Assembly (NCBI GenBank): GCA_030620925.1
Contig: JAUXIQ010000084.1
Coordinates: 1-7,648, forward strand
DNA from: JAUXIQ01 sp030620925 [NCBI: Nitrospinota bacterium]
GTDB lineage: Bacteria > JAUXIQ01
DNA length: 7,648 bases
Reading direction: 5' to 3'
Made by a program: the position numbers and the translations under genes
Part shown: positions 23-7,648 of the stretch, piece by piece
Layout: each line of letters starts with the position of its first letter
Numbering within the stretch: position 1 is the stretch's first letter
The notes under the pieces: model-generated
Seen by the model: the letters and a program-made list of their open reading frames with translations, nothing else
Told to the model about the DNA's origin: nothing
The model's database searches: none

Positions 23-1027
23 GTGCCCTCTTTTCAGAAAAGAATTACTATAATAGTACTGCTCCTGGTAATTATAGTTTCGGCGGGCACCATCGGCTAC
101 CGGATTATGGGATGGACTTTGCTGGATGCCGTTTTCATGACGGTCATCACCCTGACCACGGTGGGTTACGAAGAAGTGCATACCCTCTCGGAAGGAGGCA
201 AAGTATTCACCATCTTTCTGATATTATCCGGCCTTGGTGTCCTTTTTTACGGGATAACTAATATCACGGCGTTTATAGTAGAAGGCGAGTTGACAGATAT
301 CCTGACAAGGAGAAAGATGGAAAAGGCCGTATCGAAATTAAAAGATCACTTCATAGTTTGCGGGCTGGGCAAGACGGGGAAGCACGTCATCGAAGAGCTG
401 ATTAAGAATGAGTCTAAGTTCGTAGCCATCGAAAAGGGCATGGACAAGATAGAAGAAGCCAGGAGGATGGGAGATATCTTGTGCGTCCACGGGGATGCAA
501 CGAAAAACGAAACTTTGCTCGATGCCAACATAGAGCACGCCGGTGGCCTGGTTACCACGCTGCCCGCGGACAGTGAAAACCTGTTCGTGGTCCTCTCCGC
601 CAGAGAGATGAATCCCGACCTGCGAATAGTTAGCAGGGTAATCGAGGAAGACGCCGAGCATAAGCTCTACAAGGTCGGCGCCAACTCGGTTGTTTCCACC
701 GATTACATCAGCGGCCTGAGAATGGCCTCCGAGCTTATAAGGCCGTCAGTCGTCTCTTTCCTGGACTTGATGTTCAGAGACTCGAGCAGGACCCTGCGGG
801 TGAGCGAGATGGATATCCCTGATAAATCCAAGATGTCGGGGATTACCATACAGGATGCGGAATTGAGGGAGAAGGCGGGGGTACTGGTTCTGGCTATAAG
901 GAGGAAGGGGGAAAAAGATTTCATTTACGGCCCCTCCGCCCGCGAAAAAATTCAGGAGGGTGATACGCTCATCCTCCTGGGGGATTTAGACCAGTTGAGA
1001 ACGCTTGAAGAGCTTTTTAAGCCGTGA
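23..1027 (+). CDS. Two-TM potassium channel with C-terminal RCK (TrkA-N/TrkA-C) domains, MthK-like
   Basis: Predicted homotetrameric inner-membrane K+ channel gated through a cytoplasmic RCK ring. The 334-residue protein is the usual MthK-type size. TM1 is at about residues 8-29, followed by a pore helix and filter (TTVGYEE, 45-51). TM2 is at about 61-86 with several glycines that could act as a hinge. An RCK Rossmann domain starts near 108 with the nucleotide motif GLGKTG (114-119), and a TrkA-C-like domain covers roughly 250-333. The GTG start at 23 is the first possible start because TGA (20-22) lies directly upstream in frame. GAGGAGA at 8-14 gives an 8-nt spacing. The filter ends in Glu where canonical channels have Gly, so ion selectivity is uncertain. 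Methionine 99 at the pore/RCK junction could be an internal start. The channel assignment is secure; ligand and direction of flux are not visible. Confidence 0.92.
   Translation: MPSFQKRITIIVLLLVIIVSAGTIGYRIMGWTLLDAVFMTVITLTTVGYEEVHTLSEGGKVFTIFLILSGLGVLFYGITNITAFIVEGELTDILTRRKMEKAVSKLKDHFIVCGLGKTGKHVIEELIKNESKFVAIEKGMDKIEEARRMGDILCVHGDATKNETLLDANIEHAGGLVTTLPADSENLFVVLSAREMNPDLRIVSRVIEEDAEHKLYKVGANSVVSTDYISGLRMASELIRPSVVSFLDLMFRDSSRTLRVSEMDIPDKSKMSGITIQDAELREKAGVLVLAIRRKGEKDFIYGPSAREKIQEGDTLILLGDLDQLRTLEELFKP
307..319 (+). promoter_or_regulatory. Candidate internal ribosome binding site and start for a soluble RCK fragment
   Basis: AAGGAG at 307-312 precedes the in-frame ATG at 317-319 (Met99) by 4 nt. 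This Met lies between TM2 and the RCK domain, close to where the archaeal channel MthK uses an internal Met107 to make free RCK subunits. Use here is inferred. The spacing is short and the purines also encode ordinary residues (T-R-R-K). Confidence 0.35.
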
Positions 1028-1095: not shown

Positions 1096-1104
1096 TAAGG
1101 AGGT
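1096..1104 (+). promoter_or_regulatory. Strong Shine-Dalgarno sequence of the mutase gene
   Basis: TAAGGAGGT is a perfect match to the anti-Shine-Dalgarno end of 16S rRNA, with 6 nt to the ATG at 1111. It fixes the start and is the strongest ribosome binding site in the window, suggesting that the mutase is well translated. Confidence 0.85.
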
Positions 1105-1110
1105 ATACCC

Positions 1111-2754
1111 ATGGCGGGCAAGTCGAATGAACAAGAAAAGCGAGCCCCGGTCGACGGAGCGCCCGGAAGCCTGAAGACGATTTCGGGAGTGCCTCTGAAA
1201 CCGGTCTATACAGAAGAGGATTTAAAGGATTTCGATCCCGGGAAGGATTTGGGAGCTCCCGGCGAGTATCCTTACACGCGGGGTGTTCACAGGGATATGT
1301 ACCGTAAACGGAACTGGACTTACAGGCTCTATGCCGGTTACGGTCAGGGCGAGGATACCAATGAGCGTTTCAAGTTCCTGCTGAACAACGGCCAGACAGG
1401 GCTGAGCATGGCCCTCGATCTGCCCACCCAGTTGGGGCTCGATTCTGATGATCCCAAATCCTACGGCGAGGTGGGGAGGGTAGGGGTGGCCATCGACTCC
1501 CTGAAGGATATGGAGCACATTTATGAAGATATATCACTGGACGGCATCAGCACCTCCTTTACCATAAACGCTACCTCCAACATATTGCTGGCGATGTATC
1601 TGGCGGTGGCCGAAAATCAGGGTGTCCCGCAAGAAAAGGTGAGGGGAACCGTTCAGAACGACATACTCAAAGAATACCTGGCCCGGGGCACGTATATCTT
1701 TCCGCCCAAACCGTCCATTCGCCTCATCGGAGACACCGTTGAGTATTGCCTGAAGCATGTTCCCAAATTCAATGCAGTGAACGTGGCCGCCAGCCACATG
1801 CGCTCCGCCGGCGCCACCTACATTCAATCAACGGCCTACATGTTCCTTAACGCCATGGAATATACAAAGGAGGTGCTCAGACGGGGTTACTCCGTAGACG
1901 ACTTTGCCAGCAACATCTCTTTTCTATCCGGTGCCAACAGCGACTTTTTCGAGACCGTCGCCAGGCTGCGGGCTTCCCGCCGGCTGTGGGCGCGGTTGAT
2001 GAAGGAAAGGTTCGAGGCCAAAGAAGCCAAATCCACCATGTTCAGAGTGGCCACCGGCGGCGACTGCCTGAGTATGACAATGGAGCAGCCCATCGTAAAC
2101 GTTGCCCGCATAACCCTCCAGGCCCTCTCAAACGTCTTCGGGGGGACACAATCCATGCTGCTCCCTGCATACGATGAAGCCTACGCCATACCCACCGAGG
2201 AATCCGCCCGCGTATCGCTGCGCATCCAGCAGGTGCTTTCCAACGAAGCGGGGGTCACCAACGTGGTGGACCCGCTGGCCGGCTCCTACTTCGTGGAATC
2301 GCTGACTTCCCAGGTGGAGAAAGAGATAGTGGCCGTCATGGAGAAGATGGAGGAGAGCGGCGGAATGGTTAACGCCATCGAGAACGGGAGCATACAGCGT
2401 CAAATGGCCCGACAGGCCGTAGAGATGCAGAGGGAGTGGGATGAGGGCCATCGGCCTCTGGTGGGGCATAACTGCTACACCGTGGAAGAGAGCATAGAAG
2501 ATTACGAGGCCGAGATGTTCACCATGGAACCGGAGGTTTACAACCGGCAGGTGGAGCGACTCAAAGAAATCCGAGCCTCACGGGACAACGCACTGGTGAA
2601 TCAGAAGCTGGATGCCCTGCGCGGTGCCGCTCAGGGGACGGAGAACACCTTGCCCTATCTTATAGAGGCCATTAAAGCTTATGCCACGGTAGGCGAGATT
2701 ACCACCGTTCTTAAGGAAGTCTTCGGCGAATATCGTCAGCCCACTGCGCTCTGA
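1111..2754 (+). CDS. Methylmalonyl-CoA mutase family protein, large (substrate-binding) subunit, divergent active site
   Basis: Catalytic TIM-barrel subunit of an adenosylcobalamin-dependent acyl-CoA carbon-skeleton mutase. The 547 residues match the stand-alone large subunit. No C-terminal B12-binding DxHxxG domain is present, so a separate small subunit is needed. Aligned by eye to Propionibacterium MCM, it retains R67, T70, R72 and Y74 (R82, T85, R87, Y89), S99 (S114), Q182 (Q197), R192 (carboxylate-binding R207), K219 (K234), H229 (H244), Q347 (Q361) and E356 (E370). It differs at S228 (Y243), N268 (R283), A314 (H328), G316 (Q330) and C319 (G333). The usual HTNS before DEA is LLPA (350-353). 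Keeping Y74 and R192 argues against isobutyryl-CoA mutase (Phe) and 2-hydroxyisobutyryl-CoA mutase (Ile) and favours a carboxylated acyl-CoA. The true substrate is unknown; a larger alkyl- or arylmalonyl/succinyl-CoA is my inference. The family call is very secure, methylmalonyl-CoA specificity is not. Confidence 0.93.
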   Translation: MAGKSNEQEKRAPVDGAPGSLKTISGVPLKPVYTEEDLKDFDPGKDLGAPGEYPYTRGVHRDMYRKRNWTYRLYAGYGQGEDTNERFKFLLNNGQTGLSMALDLPTQLGLDSDDPKSYGEVGRVGVAIDSLKDMEHIYEDISLDGISTSFTINATSNILLAMYLAVAENQGVPQEKVRGTVQNDILKEYLARGTYIFPPKPSIRLIGDTVEYCLKHVPKFNAVNVAASHMRSAGATYIQSTAYMFLNAMEYTKEVLRRGYSVDDFASNISFLSGANSDFFETVARLRASRRLWARLMKERFEAKEAKSTMFRVATGGDCLSMTMEQPIVNVARITLQALSNVFGGTQSMLLPAYDEAYAIPTEESARVSLRIQQVLSNEAGVTNVVDPLAGSYFVESLTSQVEKEIVAVMEKMEESGGMVNAIENGSIQRQMARQAVEMQREWDEGHRPLVGHNCYTVEESIEDYEAEMFTMEPEVYNRQVERLKEIRASRDNALVNQKLDALRGAAQGTENTLPYLIEAIKAYATVGEITTVLKEVFGEYRQPTAL

Positions 2755-2885: not shown

Positions 2886-2897
2886 GAGGTATTGCCT

Positions 2898-4088
2898 ATG
2901 AAGGGACCATTGGCAGGAGTGAAAGTGCTGGACTTGACCCGGGCGCTGGCCGGTCCTTATGGCTCTATGATACTTGGCGATCTGGGGGCGGATATAATCA
3001 AGGTGGAGGGGCCGGATGGTGATTTCACCCGAAAGGTGCCCCCTCACTTCCATATGGGCCAGAGCATGTATTTCATATCCATGAATCGAAGCAAGAAGAG
3101 CGTAGGCATAGACCTTAAAAGCGAAGGGGGGAGGGAGGTCTTTTATCGGTTGACCGAGCACGCCGACGTAGTCTTCGATAATTTCAGAGGCGGCGTTACA
3201 GCCAAGCTGAAGCTGGACTATAAAACCCTCAAAGCCGTTAACCCCCGGATAATAACGTGCTCACTGTCGGGCTACGGCAGCAAAGGGCCCCTTGCCGATC
3301 AGCCCGCCTACGATCTTCCAATACAAGCCTTCAGCGGCGGAATGAGCATCACCGGCGAACCGGGGAGACCCCCCGTAAGGGCGGGCATACCCATTTCCGA
3401 CCTGTGCGCCGGAATGTTCGCCGCCCACGGCATAATGGCCGCCCTCTACGCCAGGGAAAAAACGGGGGAAGGGCAGCCTGTGGAAGTTTCTCTGATGAGC
3501 GGCCAGATAGGCATGCTGGCCTACATGGCGGGATACTACTTCAAGTCGGGCCAGATACCCGGCCCCGTCGGTTCGGGCCATCAGACCACCGTCCCCTACG
3601 GGGCTTTTAAGACCACCGACGGATGGATAGCCTTCTCCGGCGGCCAGGACCAGTTCTGGCCCAAGCTGTGCCGGGCGATAGGAATGGAGGAGATGGCGTC
3701 CGACGAGAAATTCCGTGATAAGAAAAACCGCCAGGAAAACCGGGACGTGCTCTACGAAATATTGAGCGAGAAGTTCGCCCAAAAGAGCACCGAGGAATGG
3801 TTGAAAATAATGATGGATTACGATATACCCGCCTCCCCCGTCCATAACCTTGAGCAGGCCCTTAACCATCCCCAGGTGCTGGCCAATAATATGGTGCTCG
3901 ACCTCACGCCCCCCGAGGGGCCGCCCATAAAGGTTGCGGGAAACCCCATAAAGATGCCCTCGATTCCTGATAAGGATTATGCCTATCCGCCTCTTTTAGG
4001 CCAGCACACCGATGAAATCCTCACCTCGCTGCTGGGTTATTCCTCAGAGCGGATTGCGAAACTGAGAGAAGAGGGAGTAATTTTTTAA
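2898..4088 (+). CDS. Family III CoA-transferase (CaiB/BaiF/Frc; alpha-methylacyl-CoA racemase superfamily)
   Basis: Predicted cytoplasmic enzyme that moves CoA between carboxylic acids, or epimerises 2-methylacyl-CoA esters, acting as an interlocked dimer. The N-terminus has the family signature LxGVKVLDLTRxLAGP, then LGADIIKVEGP. The catalytic Asp is D168 in the PISDLCAGM motif, matching Asp169 of formyl-CoA transferase. GEGQPVEVSLM follows, and a glycine loop SGGQ lies at about 247-250. At 396 residues it has normal family length. I chose ATG 2898 because GAGGT (2886-2890) is 7 nt upstream; an in-frame TTG at 2892 is too close to it. It follows the mutase gene by 143 nt on the same strand, so a shared pathway is likely: activation of a substrate to its CoA ester or adjustment of its stereochemistry before rearrangement. 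Transferase versus racemase cannot be decided by eye. Confidence 0.9.
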   Translation: MKGPLAGVKVLDLTRALAGPYGSMILGDLGADIIKVEGPDGDFTRKVPPHFHMGQSMYFISMNRSKKSVGIDLKSEGGREVFYRLTEHADVVFDNFRGGVTAKLKLDYKTLKAVNPRIITCSLSGYGSKGPLADQPAYDLPIQAFSGGMSITGEPGRPPVRAGIPISDLCAGMFAAHGIMAALYAREKTGEGQPVEVSLMSGQIGMLAYMAGYYFKSGQIPGPVGSGHQTTVPYGAFKTTDGWIAFSGGQDQFWPKLCRAIGMEEMASDEKFRDKKNRQENRDVLYEILSEKFAQKSTEEWLKIMMDYDIPASPVHNLEQALNHPQVLANNMVLDLTPPEGPPIKVAGNPIKMPSIPDKDYAYPPLLGQHTDEILTSLLGYSSERIAKLREEGVIF

Positions 4089-4300: not shown

Positions 4301-5743
4301 TTACTGTCGCCAGTAGGTGGCGGTGAAGAGCACCAGGACCGTATAAATCTCAAGCCTCCCCATGAGCATGCACACAATCAGCACCCATTTCCCCAGGATC
4401 GGTATATGGGCGTAGTCGTGGGTGGGCCCTACCAGCCCGAAGCCGGGGCCTATATTCCCCAGCGTGGCCGCCACCGAGCCCAGAGAGGTGACGATGTCGT
4501 ACCCTAAGCCGGCCATTATCAGGGAAGCCAGCAGGAAGGTGCCCGTATAAACGAGGAAAAACGCCATGGCGCCGTGTATGACCTCAGAGGGCACGGGTTT
4601 CCCGCTGATTTTCATGCTGATGACCGCCTTGGGGTGCACCAGCCGGGAAAGCTCATAGTAGCTCTGCTTGATGAACATAAGCATGCGTCCCTGTTTCATG
4701 GCGCCCCCGGTGGAGCCCGCACAACCGCCCATGAAGATCAGTATGAACAGCACCAGCCTGGATAAAAACGGCCATTGTTCGTAGTTCGCCGTCCCGTAGC
4801 CGGTGGTCGTAGTCATACTGATCACCTGGAATATGGAATACCTGAAAGCTTTGGATAGTGAACCGTAGATGTCGATCCTCGTCTGCACGGTGATGATCAG
4901 GGTGGCCACCAAAAGCACGGTGACATAAAAAAGAAACTCGCTGTCCCTGAAATAAGCTGTCGGTTTTCCCCTGATGGCGCTGTAATGCAGCACGAAATTA
5001 ACGCCCGCCAGGAACATGAAGACGGTGATGACTGTATCCACGTAGGCGCTATTATATGCTCCGATGCTGGTCGCCTTCGTGGAGAAGCCTCCGGTGGCCA
5101 TGGTGGTGAAGGCGTGAGACACCGCCTCGTACAGCGAAACGTCGCCCAGGTAGAGGAGCACCACCTCGGCGGCGGAGAATATGAGGTAGGTCACCCACAG
5201 CAGCCTGGCGGTCTCCTTGATGCGGGGGCTGAGCCTGTCGGGGGTGGGGCCGGGGACTTCGGCCCTGAATATCTGCATCCCTCCCACACCCAGCGTGGGC
5301 AGAATAGCAAGAGAGAGGACGATGATCCCCATCCCCCCCAGCCACTGGATAAGGCTGCGCCATAGCAGGATGCCGTGGGGTTGGGCTTCTATGTTGGTGA
5401 GTACCGTAGCCCCCGTGGTTGTGAAACCGGACATGGATTCGAAAACGGCGTCGGTAAAACCACCGAAGGAGCCGTAAAATAGAAAGGGGAGGCTCCCGAA
5501 GAACGCCGCCGAAACCCACCCCAGCGTTACCACGGCGAAAGCCTCTCTGGTGCCCATTTCGCCGGGGGATCTGGACAGCAAGACGAAGGCCAACCCGACG
5601 GAGACGGTCAGGAGAGAAGAATAGAGGAAGGAGTTGGCGTCGCCTTCTCCGAAGTAGATCGAGACTCCCAGGGGGGCCAGCATGCAAAGGCCCACGGCGG
5701 CTATGAGCGCGCCGATGATATAGAGGATGACCCTTAAGTTCAC
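4301..5743 (-). CDS. trkH: Trk system potassium uptake protein TrkH
   Basis: Membrane-embedded translocating subunit of the Trk K+ uptake system, gated by TrkA. The 480 residues match TrkH. The four pore-loop repeats are all present: GFTTTGAT (106-113), TMATGGFST (214-222), TTTTGYGT (311-318) and TLGNIGPGFG (427-436). Other hallmarks are QWLGGMGI (133-140) and the GGCAGSTGGAMK loop (339-350) that lies between repeat units. Hydrophobic helices fill the rest, and the first (about 4-24) is typical of the family N-terminus. The start is GTG at 5743, 18 nt after the trkA stop. No convincing Shine-Dalgarno is visible in that gap, so translation is probably coupled to trkA. The key filter glycines (G111, G218/219, G315, G432) are intact, so it should be functional. 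Na+ versus proton coupling cannot be read from the sequence. Confidence 0.96.
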   Translation of the reverse strand: MNLRVILYIIGALIAAVGLCMLAPLGVSIYFGEGDANSFLYSSLLTVSVGLAFVLLSRSPGEMGTREAFAVVTLGWVSAAFFGSLPFLFYGSFGGFTDAVFESMSGFTTTGATVLTNIEAQPHGILLWRSLIQWLGGMGIIVLSLAILPTLGVGGMQIFRAEVPGPTPDRLSPRIKETARLLWVTYLIFSAAEVVLLYLGDVSLYEAVSHAFTTMATGGFSTKATSIGAYNSAYVDTVITVFMFLAGVNFVLHYSAIRGKPTAYFRDSEFLFYVTVLLVATLIITVQTRIDIYGSLSKAFRYSIFQVISMTTTTGYGTANYEQWPFLSRLVLFILIFMGGCAGSTGGAMKQGRMLMFIKQSYYELSRLVHPKAVISMKISGKPVPSEVIHGAMAFFLVYTGTFLLASLIMAGLGYDIVTSLGSVAATLGNIGPGFGLVGPTHDYAHIPILGKWVLIVCMLMGRLEIYTVLVLFTATYWRQ

Positions 5744-5761: not shown

Positions 5762-7102
5762 TTAGCTATCGAATAGGTCTTCTACTTTCTTCAACTGGTC
5801 AGGCAGCGTGAGAATGATGACCCTGTCATCGGGCATAATGACATCTTCGCCATGGGGGATGATGACTTTTTCCCCCCGAACGATGGCCCCGATAAGAGAA
5901 CCCCGGGGGACCTTTAAATCCTTTATCGGCGTGCCCACGCATTTGGAAGTAGGGGATGCTGCTATCTCCACGGTTTCAGCCTTATCTTCGAGCAGCGTTG
6001 CCATGGACAATATTTTGGTTTTGCGGATCAGCTTCAGGATGAAGTCAGACGTGAGCTGCATGGGGTTAATGGGCACGTCGATCCCCAACGAAGAGGCCAG
6101 GGGGACGAACTCCTCGTCGGTGATGAGGCAGATGGACTTTTGGACATTGTTCTGCTTGGCCAACAGCGCGGCAAGGAGGTTGACTTCGTTCTGGTCGGTG
6201 GCGGACACAAAAGTGTGTGTGTTCATTATGCCCTCCTGCATGAGCAGTTTCCTGTCTTTGCCGTCGCCGTTGAGCACCAGCGTTTTCTTCAGATGTTCCG
6301 ATAAAAAATTGCACCTCTTGAGGTCTCTTTCGATGAGGGTAACGTTGAGGTTATCTTCATCCAGCCTTTGCGCTATGTTGAAGCCCACCCTTCCTCCACC
6401 CACGATGACTATCTTCCGGGTTTCGTCCGGTTTATCCTTGTTAACCAGGCGGAGAACTTTTTTCAGCGACTCGTCCTTGGTTATCACGAACAGCTTATCA
6501 CCGGCCAGCACGTGGTCCTCTCCGGAGGGAATTATAGGAGTGTCGTTTCGGATTATGGCGGCCACCCGAAAAGAGGGTATGTTGGGAATCTCGCTCAGTT
6601 TGTTATGGGCTATGGGGGCTTCACTGGTAATCTTGAACCCCATCAGCTTTATCTTGCCTTCAGCAAACTCATACCAATCGGTCAAGCCGGGGGTTTTGGC
6701 TATCTGCGCTATTTCCTGTGCCACGAGGCGGTTGGGGTTGATAGCGTGATCAACGCCCAGCCTTTCAAGGGGAATAGAGAAGTCTTTAGTAGTGAACTCT
6801 TGTTCACGGATGCGGGCCACGGTGATGGGAACGCCGCACTCCTTGGCTATCAGGCAGGCCAGGATGTTCTTTTCGTCCATCTCGGTGACCGCAAGAACCA
6901 TGTCTGCATCTCTTACACCCACGGCATCCAGCACGGTCAGATTTGTGCCGCTGGCCTTGAAGGTCTGAACGTCCATCTCTTCCATCGCGCGGCGAATAAC
7001 CTCTTCCCGCTCGTCGACGATGACTACCTCGACACCCTCTTTTACCAGGTTGAGGGCCAGGTTGAAGCCCACAACGCCTGCGCCTATAACGATAACCTTC
7101 AC
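5762..7102 (-). CDS. trkA: Trk system potassium uptake regulatory protein TrkA (double RCK)
   Basis: Peripheral cytoplasmic protein that forms the nucleotide-binding gating ring under TrkH. The 446 residues hold the full duplicated architecture: RCK-N1 beginning MKVIVIGAGVVG (GAGVVG at 7-12, acidic D30/E31 ending the second strand), RCK-C1 (about 138-220), RCK-N2 with GGGRVG (235-240) and acidic E258, then RCK-C2 to the end. I chose the GTG at 7102, which gives the classic family N-terminus and has GGGAGA (7115-7110) 7 nt upstream. An in-frame TTG at 7117 would overlap that site and add five atypical residues. It is the first gene of a two-gene operon with trkH. The two nucleotide motifs look intact; which nucleotide (NAD(H) or ATP/ADP) is bound cannot be settled from sequence. 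Confidence 0.96.
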   Translation of the reverse strand: MKVIVIGAGVVGFNLALNLVKEGVEVVIVDEREEVIRRAMEEMDVQTFKASGTNLTVLDAVGVRDADMVLAVTEMDEKNILACLIAKECGVPITVARIREQEFTTKDFSIPLERLGVDHAINPNRLVAQEIAQIAKTPGLTDWYEFAEGKIKLMGFKITSEAPIAHNKLSEIPNIPSFRVAAIIRNDTPIIPSGEDHVLAGDKLFVITKDESLKKVLRLVNKDKPDETRKIVIVGGGRVGFNIAQRLDEDNLNVTLIERDLKRCNFLSEHLKKTLVLNGDGKDRKLLMQEGIMNTHTFVSATDQNEVNLLAALLAKQNNVQKSICLITDEEFVPLASSLGIDVPINPMQLTSDFILKLIRKTKILSMATLLEDKAETVEIAASPTSKCVGTPIKDLKVPRGSLIGAIVRGEKVIIPHGEDVIMPDDRVIILTLPDQLKKVEDLFDS

Positions 7103-7167
7103 TCTAAGGTCTCCCAAAAATATTAAAAGACTTTCGCCCTTCCGGCCAAAGTCCGATTCGTTTCATC

Positions 7168-7308: not shown

Positions 7309-7648
7309 ATGAAGGCGGCGGTTTTAAGGGGCTTAAGAGATATTGTATGCGAGGAAGTTCCTGATCCACAGCCGGGGCCGGGTGAAGTTCTGATTAAGGT
7401 CCGTTACTGCGGTATTTGCGGCTCCGATATACATGGTTACAGAGAAGGTCTTTTCCCGCCGGGCACGGTTATGGGGCACGAGTTTTCGGGTGATGTGGTT
7501 GAGGTGGGGTCGGGGGTGGAAAATATAAGCGTTGGTGAAAAAGCAACGGTGAACCCCGCGAACCCGTGCGGTGAATGCCGATGGTGCAGGAATGGGCGGT
7601 ATTCACTCTGCCCCACGGGGATGGCCGCGGGGATAGGCTTGAGCGACT
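7309..7648 (+). CDS. Zinc-dependent medium-chain alcohol/polyol dehydrogenase, N-terminal part (cut by window end)
   Basis: First 113 codons of a medium-chain dehydrogenase/reductase that oxidises an alcohol or polyol with NAD(P)+. Catalytic-zinc ligands are visible as C37 in CGICGSDIH and H57/E58 in the GHE motif. The structural-zinc lobe is complete: C87, C90, C93 and C101 with C-x2-C-x2-C-x7-C spacing. The cofactor-binding Rossmann domain lies beyond the window. The start is ATG 7309, with a G-rich Shine-Dalgarno (GGAG at 7301-7304) 4 nt upstream. The sequence resembles the threonine, sorbitol and butanediol dehydrogenase branch, but the substrate cannot be assigned from this fragment. It is divergent from trkA with a 206-nt gap, so it is probably an independent transcription unit. 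The truncation is only due to the window boundary. Confidence 0.9.
   Translation, partial: MKAAVLRGLRDIVCEEVPDPQPGPGEVLIKVRYCGICGSDIHGYREGLFPPGTVMGHEFSGDVVEVGSGVENISVGEKATVNPANPCGECRWCRNGRYSLCPTGMAAGIGLSD

What the first reader, a model, noticed from the sequence alone, without database searches (positions are those of the whole stretch)
1111..2754. Methylmalonyl-CoA-mutase-like subunit with a rebuilt active-site loop: possible new acyl-CoA mutase specificity
By-eye alignment to Propionibacterium MCM works with almost no gaps, so the differences stand out. CoA and carboxylate contacts are kept (R67, T70, R72, Y74, Q182, R192, K219, H229). Y243 becomes S228, R283 becomes N268, H328 becomes A314, Q330 becomes G316 and G333 becomes C319. 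The near-invariant HTNS before DEA becomes LLPA. These changes cluster around the acyl and adenosyl sites. Smaller side chains (Tyr to Ser, His to Ala, Gln to Gly) would enlarge the pocket. The signature residues of isobutyryl- and 2-hydroxyisobutyryl-CoA mutases are absent. I infer a carboxylated but bulkier substrate.
Basis: partly seen in the sequence, partly recalled or inferred. Interest (0 to 1): 0.65.

Follow-up and report, generated by a model that had tools for sequence, protein, structure and literature searches.

The report
B12 mutase for bulkier acids
A bacterium of uncertain ancestry carries a vitamin-B12 enzyme of the methylmalonyl-CoA mutase type whose reaction pocket is altered, partly at the same positions as in mutases encoded with plant-hormone breakdown genes, so it probably rearranges a larger, still unidentified acid.

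Summary
ORF 1111-2754 is a complete mutase large subunit (PF01642, no B12 domain). The listed substitutions align as stated; Y89, R207, H244 and E370 are kept. The inference is largely supported, with limits. On a tree built without the pocket columns, the window protein joins two paralogues of its own genome and two betaproteobacterial genes (98/96), inside a wider group with mutases of indoleacetate (iaa) clusters, plasmid operons and HCM; union with true methylmalonyl-CoA mutases is rejected. All 17 readable group members, window included, lost H328, Q330 and the HTN motif; 0 of 77 outside rows of the same scan lost H328 and Q330 together. A class III CoA-transferase lies within 6 kb of 13 of 18 group members and 0 of 75 controls. 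Best reading: the CoA-transferase activates a substituted dicarboxylic acid, which the mutase isomerises between R-succinyl-CoA and R-methylmalonyl-CoA forms. The genome shows no glycyl radical enzyme, and its five closest IaaF-like dehydrogenases lack the IaaF motif, so neither alkane nor indoleacetate degradation is indicated. Substrate and activity are untested. The genome carries at least 17 such mutases; a separate class has 14-30 matches per genome.

The parts
1111..2754 (+). Large (substrate-binding, TIM-barrel) subunit of a B12-dependent acyl-CoA mutase, 547 aa, no B12-binding domain
   Evidence: model pLDDT 88.2, pTM 0.90; best structures 4r3u HCM Z 52.7 and 2xiq/4req MCM Z 50.8/50.7
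1097..1103 (+). AAGGAGG ribosome-binding-like sequence before the mutase ATG
   Evidence: read from the sequence
1330..1332 (+). Y74 (P. shermanii Y89), kept
1684..1686 (+). R192 (R207, carboxylate-binding Arg by recall), kept
1792..1797 (+). S228-H229 (Y243 lost, H244 kept)
1912..1914 (+). N268 (R283 lost)
2050..2067 (+). A314-T-G-G-D-C319 in place of H328-S-Q-T-S-G333
2158..2169 (+). LLPA 350-353 in place of HTNS 364-367
2892..4088 (+). Class III (CaiB/BaiF) CoA-transferase, 398 aa, 137 bp after the mutase, same strand; proposed to make the mutase's CoA substrate
   Evidence: PF02515 438 bits; best NCBIfam succinate--glutarate CoA-transferase 316.7 bits, under its cut-off of 750; 48% to the CaiB of L025/L028

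Best explanation
The ORF is the substrate-binding subunit of a coenzyme-B12-dependent acyl-CoA mutase that is not a methylmalonyl-CoA mutase. It belongs to a CoA-transferase-linked group that also contains the mutases of indoleacetate (iaa) clusters. Proposed mechanism: (1) the neighbouring class III CoA-transferase puts CoA on a free, substituted dicarboxylic acid (R-succinate type), with succinyl-CoA as donor or by moving CoA between the two carboxyls; (2) the mutase, with a small B12 subunit supplied from elsewhere in the genome (candidate C13:335-736), generates the 5'-deoxyadenosyl radical, and the thioester carbonyl migrates, turning R-succinyl-CoA into R-methylmalonyl-CoA or back; R192, Y74 and H229 hold the carboxylate and thioester as in MCM; (3) the loss of Y243, R283, H328, Q330 and HTNS gives room for, or fits, the substituent R; (4) decarboxylation and beta-oxidation follow. 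Shown: family, residues, tree group, linkage to CoA-transferases, exclusion from the MCM branch. Inferred: activity, order of steps, partner subunit, class of substrate. The identity of R is unknown.
For: Residue tables. Trees: all columns, quick: 14-row clade 97, window + L025/L028 96, these with C374/C41 98; pocket columns removed, careful: the 5 rows 98/96; 19 rows with iaa, delta, plasmid and HCM rows 94/99. AU tests. H328 and Q330 both lost in 17 of 17 readable group rows (window included), against 0 of 77 rows outside it from the 80-locus scan, 5 of 40 rows of L107-L150 and 4 of 15 other own-genome rows. CoA-transferase within 6 kb of 13 of 18 group mutases and of 0 of 75 control loci (Fisher p 3e-12, nominal because rows are related), the latter still 0 of 75 at 10 kb and E 1e-3; 0 of 14 other mutases of the same genome, whose flanks are shorter. 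The profile was built from eight CoA-transferases of the group itself. iaa clusters: hydantoinase, acyl-CoA dehydrogenase with the GGG motif, Mo-dehydrogenase, CaiB (motif and IaaL/IaaGH roles from PMC8360864). The window's CaiB is closest to those beside its sister mutases, L025/L028 (48%).
Against: No B12 subunit, GTPase or decarboxylase lies in the window. The CoA-transferase starts 137 bp downstream, so one transcript is not shown. Paralogue C374 has an enoyl-CoA hydratase but no CoA-transferase on its contig, and L121-L123 of the group have an AMP-forming ligase instead. L025/L028 have N at position 89. HCM, which acts on a non-carboxylated substrate, joins the wider group when pocket columns are dropped. 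Pocket enrichment is weak. R283 and H328 are CoA or active-site contacts by recall; their loss could also mean reduced activity. Group members were found by similarity to the window or to L071, so they are not an independent sample. No substrate was tested.
Confidence: 0.6

Rival explanations
1. It is an ordinary methylmalonyl-CoA mutase with unusual side chains; nearby residues take over the lost roles.
For: Y89, R207, H244, E370 kept; the whole MCM fold predicted.
Against: AU p 0.011 and 4e-7 against union with MCMs; the genome has a separate mutase, C176, with 1 deviation in 119 conserved columns, behind genes for a biotin/lipoyl carrier and an OAD_beta sodium-pump decarboxylase subunit.
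Confidence: 0.07
2. It is a phenylsuccinyl-CoA/benzylmalonyl-CoA mutase (IaaG role) in indoleacetate degradation.
For: Same wider group and several of the same lost positions as mutases of iaa clusters; CoA-transferase neighbour as IaaL.
Against: Six iaa-type mutases form their own 100/100 clade without the window and share I328-A-G/A-G-G-G and ALC(C/S), against the window's A-T-G-G-D-C and LLPA. No hydantoinase or Mo-dehydrogenase in the window. Of 35 acyl-CoA dehydrogenase matches in G000 the five best were read: none has GGG; 30 were not read.
Confidence: 0.1
3. It acts on a non-carboxylated branched or hydroxylated acyl-CoA, as HCM does.
For: HCM is the best structural match (Z 52.7) and joins the wider group.
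Against: R207 and Y89 are kept where HCM has Q and I; HCM keeps H328, Q330 and HTN; the neighbouring transferase resembles dicarboxylate CoA-transferases (below their cut-offs).
Confidence: 0.1
4. The pocket is degenerate: an inactive or structural subunit, like the small subunit MutA of MCM.
For: Several normally invariant contacts are gone; no B12 subunit adjacent.
Against: R207, H244, Q197, T195 and E370 kept; 17 of 17 readable group rows share the change, and 13 of 18 lie near a CoA-transferase; L025, L159-L161, L164-L166 and L201-L203 have a B12 subunit next to the mutase.
Confidence: 0.1

Closest known systems
Phenylsuccinyl-CoA / benzylmalonyl-CoA mutase IaaGH with CoA-transferase IaaL (Aromatoleum aromaticum; roles from PMC8360864)
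   Same: Same family and wider tree group; H328, Q330 and HTNS lost in the iaa-cluster mutases found here; a class III CoA-transferase neighbour; R207, Y89, H244 kept
   Different: 45-46% identity to the L071/L075 mutases; Y243 and R283 kept there, lost here; no iaa genes in the window. The A. aromaticum sequence itself was not retrieved; iaa mutases were recognised by operon content
2-Hydroxyisobutyryl-CoA mutase large subunit (HCM, 4r3u)
   Same: Separate B12 subunit, closest solved structure (Z 52.7), 45% identity, wider tree group
   Different: HCM has I89, Q207, H328, Q330, HTNG; window has Y, R, A, G, LLPA
Methylmalonyl-CoA mutase (1req/4req, 2xij, 6oxc)
   Same: Whole fold; Y89, R207, H244, Q197, E370
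   Different: Y243, R283, H328, Q330, G333 and HTNS replaced; union rejected; no fused B12 domain
Fused isobutyryl-CoA mutase IcmF (4xc6)
   Same: Fold only
   Different: F89, Q207, fused GTPase; 33% identity

Membership tests
MM_CoA_mutase family PF01642 (large subunit) | Match over the curated cut-off, full length | tested here: met
   630 bits against 22.1, profile 1-512
Methylmalonyl-CoA mutase (EC 5.4.99.2) | Carboxylate and thioester contacts Y89, R207, H244 | tested here: met
Methylmalonyl-CoA mutase (EC 5.4.99.2) | Y243, R283, H328, Q330 and the HTN of the 364-366 motif as in the three solved MCMs | tested here: not met
Methylmalonyl-CoA mutase (EC 5.4.99.2) | Falls in the clade of proven MCMs | tested here: not met
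   AU p 0.011; 4e-7 with C176/L139
Methylmalonyl-CoA mutase (EC 5.4.99.2) | Turnover of methylmalonyl-CoA | not testable with these tools
   needs an enzyme assay
2-Hydroxyisobutyryl-CoA mutase | I89 and Q207 signature (as in 4r3u and Methylibium HcmA) | tested here: not met
   Y and R in the window
Isobutyryl-CoA mutase | F89 and Q207 signature (as in IcmF) | tested here: not met
IaaG (phenylsuccinyl-CoA mutase of iaa clusters) | Inside the clade of iaa-cluster mutases | tested here: not met
   six such rows form a 100/100 clade without the window
IaaG (phenylsuccinyl-CoA mutase of iaa clusters) | Neighbours: hydantoinase A/B, IaaF-type GGG dehydrogenase, Mo-dehydrogenase | tested here: not met
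   none in the window; elsewhere in the genome only the five closest of 35 dehydrogenase matches were read, none with GGG; hydantoinase was not searched there
B12-dependent two-subunit acyl-CoA mutase | Dedicated B12-binding small subunit | tested here: inconclusive
   none in the window; seven stand-alone ones read elsewhere in the genome; pairing unknown
Ethylmalonyl-CoA mutase | Membership of the ECM clade | not tested
   no ECM reference sequence was retrieved
(1-methylalkyl)succinyl-CoA mutase of anaerobic alkane degradation | Alkylsuccinate synthase (glycyl radical enzyme) in the genome | tested here: not met
   PF02901: 0 matches in G000, which is 89% complete

The most novel reading that the evidence does not exclude
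The window enzyme is one of at least 17 mutases with which this bacterium breaks down a wide range of branched or carboxyl-rich acids by B12-radical carbon-skeleton rearrangement, each paralogue with its own pocket. The same strategy defines a separate class of uncultured bacteria in which all 8 held genomes carry 14-30 mutase-like matches. The CoA-transferase-linked group described here would be a new set of substrate specificities beyond the mutases known to me.
Probability: 0.35. Interest if true: 0.75.

Novelty: new variant of a known kind. Interest (0 to 1): 0.52.

Why it matters
By recall only a handful of B12-dependent acyl-CoA mutase specificities are proven or assigned (MCM, ICM, ECM, HCM, pivalyl-CoA, phenylsuccinyl- and alkylsuccinyl-CoA). 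A group marked by tree, pocket and CoA-transferase linkage, found in Betaproteobacteria, Rokubacteria, Hyphomicrobiales, plasmids and uncultured lineages, gives concrete enzymes and candidate substrates to assay. Genomes with tens of mutases would point to an unrecognised route for degrading branched acids.

Tried and rejected
Ordinary MCM: rejected by tree tests and by a separate canonical-pocket mutase in the genome. Alkylsuccinate pathway in this genome: no glycyl radical enzyme (89% complete). Indoleacetate pathway in this genome: not supported (5 of 35 dehydrogenase matches read). Window orthologue in the phylum of L042 (Nitrospinota by its title), the nearest searched lineage by RpoB: best 49% identity; 12 of 77 genomes had any match. 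No Rfam match at gathering cut-offs in 16 sources, one being the window. Promoter and terminator scans gave nothing clearly above shuffles. A statistical claim that substitutions are enriched in the pocket was tested and found weak.

Literature: searches (open-licence PMC only). PMC8360864: introduction, part 1 of 2 of the discussion, and found passages. PMC5214803, PMC5395668, PMC9386147, PMC11599936, PMC10356863: found passages only. Other papers: search listings only. None of the listings or passages seen described a CoA-transferase-linked mutase group or genomes with tens of mutases. Roles of residues in 1REQ, the pocket list and the pathway of alkane degraders are recalled.

Limits of counts: one search was given 50 of the 80 named loci, and 49 were searched (L060 not held); the same, with a RpoB match in 44 of 49. 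One search drew 399 genomes from a larger order. Of the six matches at 68-70% (five genomes), four were put into the tree and read for context; L174 and the second copy in G522 were not. Trees used chosen rows: 66 and 51. One row, L036_1775-6259, was dropped as a mixed-frame artefact. Neighbour names in own-genome contigs and loci are by eye or by phmmer to session proteins; ten of them were then checked by Pfam. Counts of mutase matches per genome can include split genes.

Full report
OBSERVATION. The ORF at 1111-2754 (+) encodes a 547-residue large subunit of the methylmalonyl-CoA mutase family. Y89, R207, H244, Q197, R82, T85, R87 and E370 are kept. An AlphaFold model from 44 sequences has mean pLDDT 88.2 and pTM 0.90 and matches HCM 4r3u best (Z 52.7, 1.6 A over 529 residues), then MCM (Z 50.8).

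CHANCE. Of 141 columns conserved in at least 90% of 116 reference rows, the window departs at 30. Eight lie in 20 conserved pocket columns (p 0.033, list recalled and partly circular); with a stricter list it is 4 of 14 (p 0.34). So the protein is broadly divergent, and clustering in the pocket alone is weak evidence.

OWN GENOME. The window is contig C39 of a 2.5 Mb, 445-contig assembly, 89.5% complete and 3.6% contaminated. It holds 19 PF01642 matches; 17 include the same N-terminal region and so are distinct genes, unless some contigs are contaminants. Forty other genomes of the same domain hold 0-4. Of 49 genomes reached through named loci, 42 hold 1-4 and seven hold 6-24. One paralogue, C176, departs at 1 of 119 conserved columns and follows genes with a biotin/lipoyl domain and an OAD_beta sodium-pump decarboxylase subunit: a good candidate for the real MCM. 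C374 (56%) and C41 (58%, partial) are the closest paralogues and show related changes (C374: P243, S283, A328, G330, LLAA; C41: P243, cut before 283). By RpoB the closest of 49 genomes searched (44 with a match) are two Nitrospinae MAGs, 66-67% over the full length; the relatives tool offered only genomes of the same domain, so the lineage is uncertain.

RELATIVES. The best, two betaproteobacterial MAGs (L025, L028; 50-53%), share the altered pocket. Plasmid relatives in Paraburkholderia, Marinobacter and Diaphorobacter (44-45%) lie in operons; in the two annotated ones the order is enoyl-CoA hydratase, mutase, B12 protein, CoA transferase, then a GTP-binding protein (Diaphorobacter) or a hypothetical protein (Marinobacter). 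L071 and L075 (Hyphomicrobiales), and L201, L203 and L204 from the order of L028's genome, carry the mutase near hydantoinase genes (B subunit seen in L071, L201, L203, L204; A subunit in L071, L203, L204; L075 by eye) and an acyl-CoA dehydrogenase with the sequence IGGGTSE, plus Mo-dehydrogenase genes (L075 by eye) and, except L075 whose contig ends, a CoA-transferase within 6 kb. That GGG motif is the reported mark of IaaF, and the iaa operon contains CoA-transferase IaaL and mutase IaaGH (PMC8360864); A. aromaticum also has a gamma-lactamase of the hydantoinase family for this pathway (PMC5214803). I therefore take these mutases as IaaG orthologues by context; L202, in the same clade, has only B12 protein and CoA-transferase beside it. 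The A. aromaticum sequence itself was not retrieved.

TREE. With all columns, the window sits in a 14-row clade (97) with these relatives and next to L025/L028 (96) (quick search). With 28 pocket columns removed, careful search, five rows (window, C374, C41, L025, L028) are held at 98/96, and a 19-row group with the iaa, plasmid, delta and HCM rows at 94/99. Leaving HCM out is not rejected (p 0.344); uniting the window clade with three solved MCMs is (p 0.011), and with C176/L139 strongly (p 4e-7).

TWO TRAITS OF THE GROUP. First, H328 and Q330 are both lost in 17 of 17 readable rows of the group (window included), as is HTN; Y89+R207+H244 are kept in 15 of 17 (L025 and L028 have N89). Outside it: 0 of 77 rows from the genome scan, 5 of 40 rows from genome-search loci L107-L150 and 4 of 15 own-genome rows lost both. 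Second, a class III CoA-transferase lies within 6 kb of 13 of 18 group mutases, of 0 of 75 control loci and of 0 of 14 other own-genome mutases, whose flanks average only 3.9 kb; the controls stay at 0 of 75 at 10 kb and E 1e-3. The profile came from eight CoA-transferases of the group, 27-92% identical to one another, so very distant ones could be missed. The exceptions are C374 (enoyl-CoA hydratase upstream), L075 (contig end) and L121-L123, where MeaB, B12 protein, MmgE/PrpD and an AMP ligase surround the mutase. The window's CaiB is 48% identical to those of L025/L028, its highest among the seven compared.

MECHANISM. The simplest reading that fits both traits is a CoA-transferase that activates a substituted dicarboxylic acid and a mutase that shifts the thioester group between R-succinyl-CoA and R-methylmalonyl-CoA, as IaaL and IaaGH do. 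Retained R207 and Y89 argue for a carboxylated substrate; the shared loss of His, Gln and the HTN loop argues for a substituent. The small B12 subunit is not in the window; seven stand-alone ones were read elsewhere in the genome, and the one most like the partners of the relatives is at C13:335-736 (140.7 bits; PF02310). The genome has 20 matches to this CoA-transferase family, no glycyl radical enzyme match, and its five closest IaaF-like dehydrogenases of 35 lack GGG. Hence neither the alkylsuccinate nor the indoleacetate route is indicated, and the substituent stays unknown.

VERDICT. It is a new variant of a known kind. The larger surprise is the number of mutases: at least 17 here, and 14-30 matches in each of 8 of 8 held genomes of the class that contains L059, with pockets that differ from one paralogue to the next.

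Noticed in passing
L059, L064, L065, L070, L086 and their class (8 genomes): All 8 held genomes of one class, named members titled 'Deltaproteobacteria', 'Desulfobacterales' or 'bacterium' (1.9-3.1 Mb), carry 14-30 mutase-like matches, where most genomes looked at have 0-4; split genes may inflate some counts.
   Followed up: partly
own genome contigs C282, C122, C118, C330, C439, C154, C97 (L006, L011, L014-L016, L018, L021): Other mutase paralogues of the window's genome appear to have lost the carboxylate Arg (207 to G/A) and the His at 244 (to D/N/A/S); their substrates, or activity, must differ again. The alignment near 207 is unsure in these rows.
   Followed up: partly
L013 639-4147: Canonical-pocket mutase C176 follows a biotin/lipoyl-domain gene and an OAD_beta sodium-pump decarboxylase subunit: probably the genome's true methylmalonyl-CoA mutase.
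   Followed up: partly
genome of L086 (G077): 27 PFL-like glycyl radical enzyme matches in a 2.8 Mb genome that also holds 24 PF01642 matches; some lie on the same contigs (C83, C254).
   Followed up: no
L159 7107-11220, L160 5168-10155, L161 5105-9978: Plasmid-borne operons with enoyl-CoA hydratase, altered-pocket mutase, B12 protein and CoA-transferase in Paraburkholderia, Marinobacter and Diaphorobacter; a cultivable place to learn the substrate.
   Followed up: partly
L036/L170 5631-14401, CoA-transferase at G046:C264:14830-15930: Rokubacteria GWA2_73_35 has three mutase genes and an enoyl-CoA hydratase close together, followed by a CoA-transferase; 9 mutase matches in its genome.
   Followed up: partly
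own genome L015 3762-7312 and L164 12001-13359: MmgE/PrpD-family genes stand beside mutase and B12 genes both in the window's genome (C122) and in the mutase-rich class.
   Followed up: no
L232 (G041:C3:7643-8767): The genome of the window's sister mutase L025 has an acyl-CoA dehydrogenase with a GGG motif (IGGGASEV), about 35% to the IaaF-type one, on another contig.
   Followed up: no
L040, L049, L061: Chloroflexi mutases keep H328 and Q330 but have ALSC in place of HTNS: another pocket variant, outside the window's group.
   Followed up: no
window 23-1027 +, 4301-5743 -, 5762-7117 -: K+ channel with TrkA domains, TrkH and TrkA: an ordinary potassium uptake set around the mutase pair; an alcohol dehydrogenase starts at 7309.
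   Followed up: no
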